Origin: Theobroma cacao
Lineage: Eukaryota; Streptophyta; Magnoliopsida; Malvales; Malvaceae
Direction of reading: 5' to 3'
Assembly (NCBI RefSeq): GCF_000208745.1
Contig: NC_030851.1
Span: 1,108,315 to 1,172,314 of the forward strand
DNA: 64,000 bases
A program made the position numbers and the translations under genes. This document shows, one piece after another, positions 45,504 through 48,116 of this stretch. Below the pieces are notes generated by a model, which searched no databases, was not told where the DNA came from, and saw only the letters and a list, made by a program, of their open reading frames with translations. Positions within the stretch are counted from its first letter, which is position 1. Each line of letters starts with the position of its first letter.

Positions 45504-48116
45504 CCGATAAAGTTGTAGACGACATAAACCAGGTATCTGAAAAAATAACAAACAAAGATAATTAAAATATAATAAGAGGATAATTTAAAAGAAAAAAATA
45601 TAACTATAGAAAAGTAAGTTTAAAATGTAAAAGGATCCAAAATTGTCATGAATAAAAGAAGAGTCGGCAATCAGGAATAATTTGTCAAAACAGAACACTA
45701 ATGAAGTTGGTCTTGCTCAAATATAGCATCATTAGAATATGATTATTTAGATGTTAGAGACTAGATATCATAACTAAAATAAAATTGTTGGTTTGGATTC
45801 GATTTTGAACTTTAAACTTGGACCATCTTGAATGTTACTGTCTATTTGCTTTATCGAACATATAAATAAGTAAATTATACAACAATATTGTTTCCATTTA
45901 TAATTACAATAAAAAATATTGTTTCTTGAAAAAAAGTAATTCGAATGATGGAAGTAAGTGACATATAATACCCGAGACAATTGTAGAAGATGTAAAGAGT
46001 CCTGAAAAAATAACAAACAAATATAATTATAGTATAACGATATGATAATGTAAAATAAAAAATATATATAACTATAGGAAAGTAAATTCAAAATGTAAAA
46101 GGATCCAAAATTGTCATGAACAAAAGAAAAGTAGGCAATCAATAACAATACATCAAAACTGAACACTAATGAAGTTGGTCTTGCTCAAATACAACATTAT
46201 CAGATTTTGATTATTTAGATGCTACAGACTAGATATCATAACTAAAATGAAATTATTGGTTTGGATTCAATTTTGAGCTTTAAACTCAATCCATCCTGAA
46301 TGTTATTGTCTCTATTTGCGTTATCAACATACAAATGAGTAAATTATACATCAATATTGTTTCCATTTATAATTACAATAAAAAATATTGTTTCTTGAAA
46401 AAGTAATGTGAATGATAGAAGTAAGTGAAATATAATACCCGACGGAGTCGTAGACGACTTATATTAGGTAACTGAAAAAAAAAACAAAGAAAGATAATTA
46501 TGATATAATAAGAGGATATTGTAAAATAAAATAATATATAAATATATATATAACTATAGAATGTAAATTCAGAACGTAAAAGGATCGAAAATTGTCATGA
46601 ACAAAAGAAAAGTAGGTAATCAGGAACAATACATCAAAACTTAACACTAATGAAGTTGGTCTTGCTCGAATACAACATCAAAATTTGATTATTTAGATGT
46701 TAGAGACTAAATATTATAACTTAAATAAAACTGTTGGTTTGGATTCAATTTGAACTTTAAACTTAATCCATCCTGAATGTTACTGTCTCTATTTGTTTTA
46801 TCAACATACAAATGAGTAAATTATACGTCAACATTGTTTTCATTTATAATAAAAAATATTATTTCTGGAAAATAAATAATTTGAATGATTGGAGTTAAAT
46901 ACAATACCTGAGTGCCTTGTGCAGAATGTAACACAATCTGAAAAAATAACAACAAAGATAATTATAATAATATAATAAGAGAATAATGTAAAATATAAGA
47001 AAATATAACTATAGGAAAGTAAATTTAATACGTAAAATGATCGAAAATCGTCAAGAACAAAAGAAAAGTAGGCAATCAGGAACAATATACCAAAACTGAC
47101 CACTGATGAAGTTGGTCTTGGTCAAATACAACATCATCATAATTTGATTATTTAGATGTTAGAGATTAGATATCATAACTAACATAAAACTGTTAATTTG
47201 AATTGAATTTTGACCTTTAAACTCTAACCATCCTGATTGTTACTATCTCTGTTTGCTTTATCAACAGACAAATGAGTAAATTATACATCAACATTTGTTT
47301 CCATTTATGATTACAATAAAAAATATTATTTCTTCAAAAAAAGTAATTTAAATTATCAAAGTGATTGAAATATGATACCCGAGGGGCCCTTTTACAACGT
47401 AAACCTTCCTGAAAAAATAACAAACAAAGATAATTATAATAATATAAAATAAAAAATATATATCTATAGGAAAGTAAATTTTAAACGTAAAAGGCTCAAA
47501 AATTGTCATGAATAAAAGAAAAGTCGACAATCAGGAACAATATATTAAAAATGACCACTAATGAAGTTGGTCTTGCTCAAATACATCATCATCATAATTT
47601 GATTATTTAAATATTAGAGAGTAAATATCATAACTAAAACAAAGCTGTTGGTTTGGATTCAATTTTGAACTTTAAACTCGAATNACAAAATATATTTAAT
47701 ATAAAATAAAAAATATATATCTATAGGAAAGTAAATTTTAAACGTAAAAGGCTCAAAAATTGTCATGAATAAAAGAAAAGTCGACAATCAGGAACAATAT
47801 ATTAAAAATGACCACTAATGAAGTTGGTCTTGCTCAAATACATCATCATCATAATTTGATTATTTAGATGTTAGAGAATAGATGTCATAACTAAAATACA
47901 ACTGTTGCTTTAGATTTAATTTTGAACTTTAAACTTTAGCCATCCTAAATGTTACTGTCTTTATTTGCATTATGAACATACAAATGAGTAAATTATATAT
48001 AGATATTGTTTCCATTTATAATTACAATAAAAAATATTATTTCTTGAATAAAAATAATTTGAATGATGGAAGTGAGTGAAACATAATACCCGACGTATTC
48101 GAACAAGTAAAGGTAC
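45504..48116 (-). CDS. TMX7 micro-exon array: six phase-0 micro-exons in ~460-bp repeats
   Basis: Between an acceptor TTTTTTCAG (or close variant) and the donor GTATTATATTTC (or variant) lie six short segments: 45536-45504 (33 nt, IPGLCRLQLYR), 46001-45972 (30, DSLHLLQLSR), 46471-46439 (33, LPNISRLRLRR), 46937-46908 (30, IVLHSAQGTQ), 47408-47379 (30, EGLRCKRAPR) and 48116-48090 (27, VPLLVRIRR). All are whole codons, open in phase 0. They sit in tandem units of about 455-480 bases whose introns are nearly alike, each with a cassette remnant (AATGAAGTTGGTCTTGCTC) and the short repeated intron. Most encoded residues are basic or hydrophobic. Use as exons is inferred from splice signals and length pattern only. 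Confidence 0.5.
47443..47860. repeat. Direct duplication across a single N (assembly join)
   Basis: About 150 bases ending near CATCATCATAATTTG before the N at 47684 recur right after it almost unchanged. One unit of the array may therefore be an assembly product. Confidence 0.65.

What the first reader, a model, noticed from the sequence alone, without database searches (positions are those of the whole stretch)
45504..48116. Tandem array of whole-codon micro-exons in a plant membrane-protein gene (TMX7)
Six segments of 33, 30, 33, 30, 30 and 27 nt are bounded by the same acceptor (TTTTTTCAG type) and donor (GTATTATATTTC type) in consecutive repeats of about 460 bases. All six are multiples of three and open in phase 0, though their sequences differ strongly. 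More such segments occur in other copies: 18 and 27 nt (TMX4), 69 (TMX8), 90 and 108 (TMX2), 108 (TMX3), 42 (58.4 kb). All 13 keep whole codons and an open frame; for non-coding DNA each length would fit with chance one third. This resembles micro-exon gene families known from schistosomes and the bicycle genes of aphids; I know of no such plant family.
Basis: partly seen in the sequence, partly recalled or inferred. Interest (0 to 1): 0.9.

Follow-up and report, generated by a model that had tools for sequence, protein, structure and literature searches.

The report
Hypervariable micro-exon array in cacao genes
A cluster of cacao membrane-protein genes carries very short, whole-codon exons, six of them in a row in one gene, that change much faster than the introns around them; gene models of sister genes use such exons, but no transcript of the six-exon gene has been seen.

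Summary
Six segments of 33, 30, 33, 30, 30 and 27 nt, with AG before and GT after on the minus strand, lie at the stated places in ~460-bp repeats. The window is Theobroma cacao.

Sister genes show what the segments are. Of 13 cacao protein models found, five contain such segments; one from another cacao genome (P0006, partial) joins three in series (18, 27, 30 nt) at the borders predicted here. Junctions examined are phase 0.

Array segments diverge by 0.45, flank windows by 0.15; 0 of 299 reach 0.45. In nine close pairs synonymous change (0.096) matches the introns (0.086); amino-acid change is 0.21. This suggests diversifying selection.

Against: no model found contains the six-exon array, its first exon was not found, P0006's gene is broken in this genome, and 11 segments outside the window include one of 37 nt and two with stops.

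Most likely: coding cassettes for a hypervariable, probably cytosolic, part of a membrane-anchored protein, like schistosome MEG or aphid bicycle genes but unrelated. Function is unproven.

The parts
45504..45536 (-). micro-exon T7a, 33 nt, IPGLCRLQLYR
   Evidence: CAG|...|GTATTA, phase 0, open
45972..46001 (-). micro-exon T7b, 30 nt, DSLHLLQLSR
46439..46471 (-). micro-exon T7c, 33 nt, LPNISRLRLRR
46908..46937 (-). micro-exon T7d, 30 nt, IVLHSAQGTQ
47379..47408 (-). micro-exon T7e, 30 nt, EGLRCKRAPR
48090..48116 (-). micro-exon T7f, 27 nt, VPLLVRIRR
48275..48421 (-). probable upstream exon A of TMX7, 147 nt, open, donor GTATTATAG; resembles the exon ending ...SDWERSFLEILK of the P0006 gene; acceptor CTCAAG chosen by eye
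45028..45252 (-). module exon of TMX7, 225 nt, open, phase 0 (SALREQLPIAND...DDWRSK)
   Evidence: resembles the module GALRDQLPIA...DGWRLK of P0006
44445..44939 (-). last exon of TMX7, hydrophobic (about four membrane helices), open to its stop
   Evidence: hydropathy was computed on the paralogue at 27 kb
45263..48198 (-). tandem array of ~460-bp units carrying the six micro-exons; units also hold two relic halves of an older coding module, now intronic
22881..22970 (-). segment T2a, 90 nt; its peptide is exon 2 in annotated protein P0011
23736..23843 (-). segment T2b, 108 nt, identical to T3; not in P0011
30970..31077 (-). segment T3, 108 nt; its peptide is exon 2 in annotated proteins P0004 and P0010 (LOC18607171 X2 and X1); T2b would fit equally
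31788..31889 (-). exon 1 of the TMX3 gene, arginine-rich (MDEKRR...SSSQ)
24560..24679 (-). exon 1 of the TMX2 gene (MMESHL...SSGQ)
33208..33234 (-). segment T4a, 27 nt (acceptor TTTTTGAG)
33425..33442 (-). segment T4b, 18 nt
52687..52755 (-). segment T8, 69 nt
58429..58470 (-). segment S58, 42 nt, no clear host gene
10311..10322 (-). segment T1, 12 nt, donor AT instead of GT (dead); absent from the model P0016 of another cacao genome
20844..21305 (-). last (membrane) exon of TMX2; also in P0010
26753..27229 (-). last (membrane) exon of TMX3, in P0004

Best explanation
The six segments are coding micro-exons of a rapidly evolving cacao family of membrane proteins. Each gene has a conserved 3' exon for a domain with about four membrane helices, usually one or more acidic module exons before it, and, in several copies, short exons upstream of these, flanked by closely similar introns. 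The junctions examined are phase 0, so exons can be gained, lost, skipped or borrowed from a neighbouring gene without a frameshift. In TMX7 local duplication of a ~460-bp unit produced six micro-exons in a row. The exons then diverged under diversifying selection while the introns kept their splice signals, giving a variable, probably cytosolic, N-terminal peptide tethered to a membrane. Shown: position, lengths, frame, splice signals, excess divergence, presence of sister segments in annotated proteins. Inferred: splicing and translation of the TMX7 array, topology, and a role in a recognition or conflict process such as defence.
For: Annotated cacao proteins contain sister segments: P0004/P0010 (108 nt), P0011 (90 nt), P0005 (18 nt), and P0006 18+27+30 nt in series, joined at the predicted borders. 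Array divergence 0.447 against a flank-window mean of 0.154, 0 of 299 flank windows as high. Nine close equal-length pairs: segment 60/321 against flank 225/2603, p=1e-7; nonsynonymous 0.210, synonymous 0.096, flank 0.086, N versus S p=0.024. Length differences in the array are whole codons, while 7 of 42 gap runs in the flank alignments are divisible by three. GC contrast. TMX7 exon A, six micro-exons and module and last exon are each whole codons and open. P0010 joins 5' exons of TMX3 to the last exon of TMX2.
Against: None of the proteins found holds the six-exon array, and 8 of 13 cacao models contain none of the segments. The arginine-rich first exon was not found for TMX7. The gene of P0006, the best example of serial micro-exons, is broken in this genome: AT donor at its third micro-exon, GC donor after the exon before them, and a frameshift in its membrane exon. 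Two of nine pairs have identical segments (T2b/T3, EILG1/EILG2). Other copies are dead: donor lost in T1, VHLL and one plus-strand copy; a stop in VHLL; a 37-nt copy with stops. Introns may be homogenised by gene conversion: for one gene pair the membrane exons differ by 67/470 while the introns differ by 18/300. N versus S alone is only p=0.024.
Confidence: 0.7

Rival explanations
1. The TMX7 array is a decaying, non-coding duplication: the sister genes have real micro-exons, but these six copies are no longer spliced or translated.
For: No protein model among those found, no first exon found; other copies in the cluster are visibly dead; relic exon halves inside the unit show decay.
Against: A decaying copy would diverge at the intron rate, but the six segments differ about three times more than their flanks, keep AG and GT in 6 of 6, whole codons and open frame, and lie between open exons of TMX7.
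Confidence: 0.22
2. The segments are coding but not positively selected: gene conversion keeps the introns alike, so the introns understate the neutral rate and the short exons only look fast.
For: Membrane exons of the genes at C2 1082 kb and 1090 kb differ by 67/470 while the introns near their micro-exons differ by 18/300, so the rates form a mosaic.
Against: Conversion tracts would run over 30-nt exons too; synonymous change within the segments matches the introns (0.096 and 0.086) while nonsynonymous change is 0.21; array segments (0.45) exceed the synonymous divergence of five membrane exons (dS 0.10-0.30).
Confidence: 0.2
3. The six are mutually exclusive alternative exons, one per transcript, as in arthropod Dscam, rather than all joined in series.
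For: P0011 holds T2a and lacks T2b, which in this genome lies between T2a and exon 1 (P0011 comes from another genome, where T2b may be absent); tandem duplicates of one exon slot.
Against: P0006 joins three different micro-exons in series; phase 0 gives no frame penalty for including several.
Confidence: 0.2
4. The micro-exon came in with a transposable element that split an older coding module, and was exonised.
For: Units hold the two halves of a module (VVFEQDQLH and ...ESKPT) separated by roughly 300 bp that contain the micro-exon.
Against: All 49 matches of the unit in the own genome lie in this one cluster, so it does not look like an ordinary repeat family (which scores only the best candidates); no target duplication or terminal repeat was noticed by eye, but none was sought with a tool. 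It speaks to origin, not to present use.
Confidence: 0.15

Closest known systems
Schistosome micro-exon genes (MEG)
   Same: Many very short internal exons, mostly multiples of three, between much longer introns; diversification by sequence change and alternative splicing (PMC10526429, passages seen).
   Different: MEG proteins are secreted with a signal peptide; here no hydrophobic N-terminus was seen but a C-terminal membrane domain; no sequence relation found; a plant, not a parasite.
Aphid bicycle genes
   Same: Many small internal exons of one phase and extreme divergence of coding sequence (PMC9168663, passages seen).
   Different: Bicycle internal exons are almost all phase 2 and the proteins bear CYC motifs; here phase 0, no such motif noticed, membrane-anchored.
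ASSET in snake venom toxin genes
   Same: Short exon stretches change radically (starts of the abstracts of PMC2711939 and PMC2474615 seen in the listing); that introns stay alike there is recalled.
   Different: There, stretches inside exons of secreted toxins; here whole micro-exons in tandem arrays of a plant gene.
Conserved plant microexons (Yu et al. 2022)
   Same: Very short plant exons, often missed by annotation (PMC8831610, passages seen).
   Different: Those studied are 1-15 nt, and many are conserved across land plants; these are 18-108 nt and hypervariable.
Kinases with the same membrane domain in Euphorbiaceae, and B3-domain proteins of Reevesia
   Same: Share the four-helix domain (43-48% and 73-74% identity to it).
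   Different: There the domain sits before a kinase, or behind a B3-like domain (P0003 scores below Pfam's cut-off). P0004 and P0006 from cacao have no kinase match, so the database name 'PBS1' is misleading.

Membership tests
Schistosome MEG | many internal exons of 6-81 nt, mostly multiples of three | tested here: met
   Six in TMX7, three in series in the P0006 gene; 24 of 25 segments found in the cluster are divisible by three, though some are 90-108 nt and the MEG number of 10-20 per gene is not reached
Schistosome MEG | N-terminal signal peptide, secreted protein | tested here: not met
   Exon 1 is arginine-rich without a hydrophobic run, by reading P0004, P0011 and P0016; no signal predictor was run
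Schistosome MEG | sequence homology to MEG proteins | tested here: not met
   Three protein searches returned plant proteins only: 17, 11 and 10 hits; ten-residue peptides alone cannot be tested this way
Aphid bicycle genes | internal exons of phase 2 | tested here: not met
   The junctions examined are phase 0
Aphid bicycle genes | CYC motifs | tested here: inconclusive
   Peptides were only read by eye; few cysteines, no repeated pattern noticed; no motif search was run
Dscam-type mutually exclusive exons | exactly one exon of the array per transcript | tested here: inconclusive
   P0006 has three in series, P0011 lacks one; no RNA for TMX7
Conserved plant microexons | conservation across land plants | tested here: inconclusive
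   Homologues found were from cacao, Herrania, Reevesia, Hevea, Manihot and Euphorbia; none of the six non-cacao proteins holds a recognisable segment peptide, but their genes were not seen
Receptor-like kinase PBS1/CCR3 (database name) | protein kinase domain | tested here: not met
   No kinase match in P0004 or P0006; present in Manihot P0013

The most novel reading that the evidence does not exclude
A plant counterpart of the MEG and bicycle systems: a tandem cluster in cacao that makes hypervariable peptides by serial micro-exons, with frame-neutral splicing also between neighbouring genes, displayed inside the cell on a membrane anchor as bait, decoy or recognition element in an arms race or a self/non-self system.
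Probability: 0.3. Interest if true: 0.88.

Novelty: new variant of a known kind. Interest (0 to 1): 0.74.

Why it matters
Micro-exon arrays that diversify proteins were known to me only from parasites and gall insects that attack hosts. Here a similar gene organisation appears in a plant. The cluster offers a natural experiment: closely similar introns next to exons that change by whole codons, so selection and splicing can be measured side by side. If the array is spliced in series, cacao has a genetic way of making variable intracellular peptides, which would be of interest for disease resistance or incompatibility. It also warns that automatic annotation (here 'PBS1') can miss or misname such genes.

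Tried and rejected
Reading the segments as non-coding: rejected for the family because protein models contain them, kept as a rival for TMX7. Reading the gene as a kinase ('PBS1'): rejected, no kinase match in P0004 or P0006. Structure of the membrane domain: mean pLDDT 51, so no fold search was made. Similarity of the domain to solved structures: none up to E=1; Pfam hits below cut-off only. A first count of close pairs used five pairs that I picked (26.5 N against 1.5 S); it flatters the case, so the pairing, made by flank similarity alone and including identical and broken copies, is the one to rely on; it leaves 6 of 24 segments unpaired, and T1 was not among the 24. In the 11-sequence alignment 3 of 304 flank windows reached the segment's divergence; I take this to be because two members are not alike there. 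T2a and T2b could not be aligned reliably as proteins. A possible allelic difference in P0005 (WVPDGLQEVIP against MGSCYKEIIP in this genome) was not counted: the two may not be alleles, since about 10.8 kb of the cluster could not be read. The paper on the Matina genome is not held, so that RNA supports those gene models is recalled, not checked; 'Matina' and 'Criollo' are my recall for the genomes behind the records. Papers with locus names of this cluster: none (three of the five names searched were guesses). Searches for a plant family of this kind; only listings and the passages named were seen, and none described one.

Full report
WHAT IS THERE. The window is Theobroma cacao: the protein of the two-exon gene at 54.7-55.6 kb finds the cacao proteins P0001 and P0002 at 96% and 99% identity, and the genome that holds the window has a contig of 41,236,440 bases, the same length as the longest contig behind the cacao proteins P0004 and P0010. 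On the minus strand lies a tandem gene family. Its membrane exon starts at 9295, 21305, 27229, 44939, 52189, 55161 and 60578; those at 9295 and 52189 contain stops and the one at 60578 has a stop and a deletion; a partial copy lies at 42.7-43.0 kb. The neighbour at 61-63.3 kb on the plus strand has a PWWP domain.

THE SEGMENTS. On the minus strand each begins after AG and ends before GT. The six of TMX7 read IPGLCRLQLYR, DSLHLLQLSR, LPNISRLRLRR, IVLHSAQGTQ, EGLRCKRAPR and VPLLVRIRR. They lie between a probable upstream exon (48275-48421, acceptor chosen by eye) and a module exon (45028-45252); these, the six segments and the last exon at 44445-44939 are all whole codons and open. BLAST with the arginine-rich first exon of two sister genes hit near 11.0, 24.6, 31.8, 34.2, 37.8 and 53.4 kb but nothing next to TMX7, so the start of TMX7 is not known; it may borrow the first exon of the next gene upstream, as P0010 seems to borrow exons (inference).

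EVIDENCE THAT SUCH SEGMENTS ARE EXONS. The three protein searches gave 19 proteins, 13 of them from cacao. Comparing the segment peptides with all 19, five cacao models contain segments, 8 of 13 do not, and none of the six others does apart from a 4-of-6 chance match. P0004 and P0010 (LOC18607171 X2 and X1) have the 108-nt segment as exon 2 (36 of 36 residues; T2b and T3 are identical, so either could be the source). P0011 has the 90-nt segment as exon 2 (30 of 30) and lacks the 108-nt one that lies between it and exon 1 here. P0005 holds EILGLK (18 nt). P0006, called 'isoform 2, partial', reads WERSFLEILK-KIEDFE-EDSGTRVFK-ISSLDQEVIP-GALRDQ: KIEDFE (6 of 6), EDSGTRVFK (9 of 9) and the next ten residues (8 of 10) are the 18, 27 and 30-nt segments of the sister cluster at C2 1091.0-1091.8 kb, joined at the borders that the flanks predict. 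P0005, P0006 and P0011 come from another cacao assembly (longest contig 42,436,413). In the present genome the P0006 gene is broken: its third micro-exon has an AT donor, the exon before the micro-exons a GC donor, and its membrane exon a frameshift. P0010 joins 5' exons of TMX3 to the module and last exon of TMX2, spanning 31.9 to 20.8 kb. That these models rest on RNA reads is recalled from how such annotations are made, not checked.

OUTSIDE THE WINDOW. A search of the own genome with the TMX7 unit gave 49 matches, all on C2 between 1082.5 and 1167 kb (only the best candidates are scored). The part left of the window, of which about 10.8 kb could not be read, gave 8 segments on the minus strand and 3 on the plus strand. 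Of these 11, 10 are multiples of three and 9 are open. The exceptions are a 37-nt copy with stops and a 30-nt copy (VHLL) with a stop. Donors are lost in LESL, VHLL and one plus-strand copy, and in T1 inside the window. So the cluster contains dead copies as well as good ones.

CHANCE AND RATE. In 3605 flank windows of the six aligned units, 3127 vary in length between copies and 2 of those keep all six lengths divisible by three. The array segments differ by 0.447 on average; flank windows of the same length by 0.154, with a maximum of 0.299 and 0 of 299 as high. With five further copies added, the segment mean is 0.512 and 3 of 304 flank windows reach it. For a less selected test I took 24 segments with their flanks and paired equal-length ones greedily by flank similarity alone: nine pairs, six segments left over. 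Segments differ at 60 of 321 sites, flanks at 225 of 2603 (p=1.2e-7). Within segments, synonymous change is 6.7/69.3 (0.096), like the flanks (0.086), and nonsynonymous change 52.3/248.7 (0.210); N against S p=0.024. Two of the nine pairs have identical segments, and one pair (ETD/ETN) is less diverged than its flanks (2/27 against 50/277). T2a and T2b were not paired because of unequal length; their flanks differ by 2-4% within 100 nt, yet the segments are 90 and 108 nt and barely alignable. Membrane exons of five copies have dN near or below dS (dN/dS about 0.7-1). Gene conversion of introns cannot be excluded as part of the cause.

ORIGIN. The 460-bp units contain both halves of an older module (VVFEQDQLH... 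and ...ESKPT), separated by roughly 300 bp that carry the micro-exon. In the 55-kb gene the same module is unbroken. So the cassette probably arose inside, or inserted into, a coding module whose halves became intron; it was then amplified (inference).

HOW IT MAY WORK. The last exon of the 27-kb copy has four hydrophobic stretches. The basic loop between the second and third and the basic tail suggest that both ends face the cytosol (positive-inside rule, inference). In Euphorbiaceae the same domain precedes a kinase, which would then be cytosolic too. The micro-exon part would be a variable cytosolic N-terminal peptide on a membrane anchor. Phase-0 borders let exons be added, skipped or joined across genes. 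A role in recognition or genetic conflict is the natural guess from the pattern of change, but nothing here tests it.

COMPARISON. It works like schistosome MEG genes and aphid bicycle genes (passages seen) but fails defining features: secretion for MEG, phase 2 for bicycle. It differs in length and variability from the conserved plant microexons (passages seen). Searches for a described plant counterpart listed none; the library holds open-licence papers only.

Noticed in passing
window 20844-31889: Model P0010 (LOC18607171 X1) joins 5' exons of TMX3 to the module and last exon of TMX2: frame-neutral splicing between neighbouring genes, or a mis-joined gene model.
   Followed up: partly
C2 1091003-1091032 (L010): Donor of the third micro-exon is AT here, while the model P0006 from another cacao genome contains that exon with two other residues (ISSL against LESL): possible polymorphism of splicing and sequence within the species.
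   Followed up: partly
window 32500-32600 and 59600-59780: Two copies of a coding-like fragment rich in A, K and E (..EAARVKA..) beside TMX copies, probably a duplicated gene piece; seen by eye.
   Followed up: no
window 8039-8419 and 25877-26221, plus strand: Two similar ORFs of another gene (MGDGMVTAAG...), apparently duplicated along with the cluster; no Pfam match.
   Followed up: partly
window 1838-2236, minus strand: Copia-type retrotransposon gag fragment (PF14223).
   Followed up: no
P0003, P0018 (Reevesia pubescens): The same membrane domain behind a B3-like DNA-binding domain, apparently joined at the same exon border (protein sequences only).
   Followed up: partly
window 63631-63995: 33-base tandem repeats near the end of the window, beyond the PWWP gene.
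   Followed up: no
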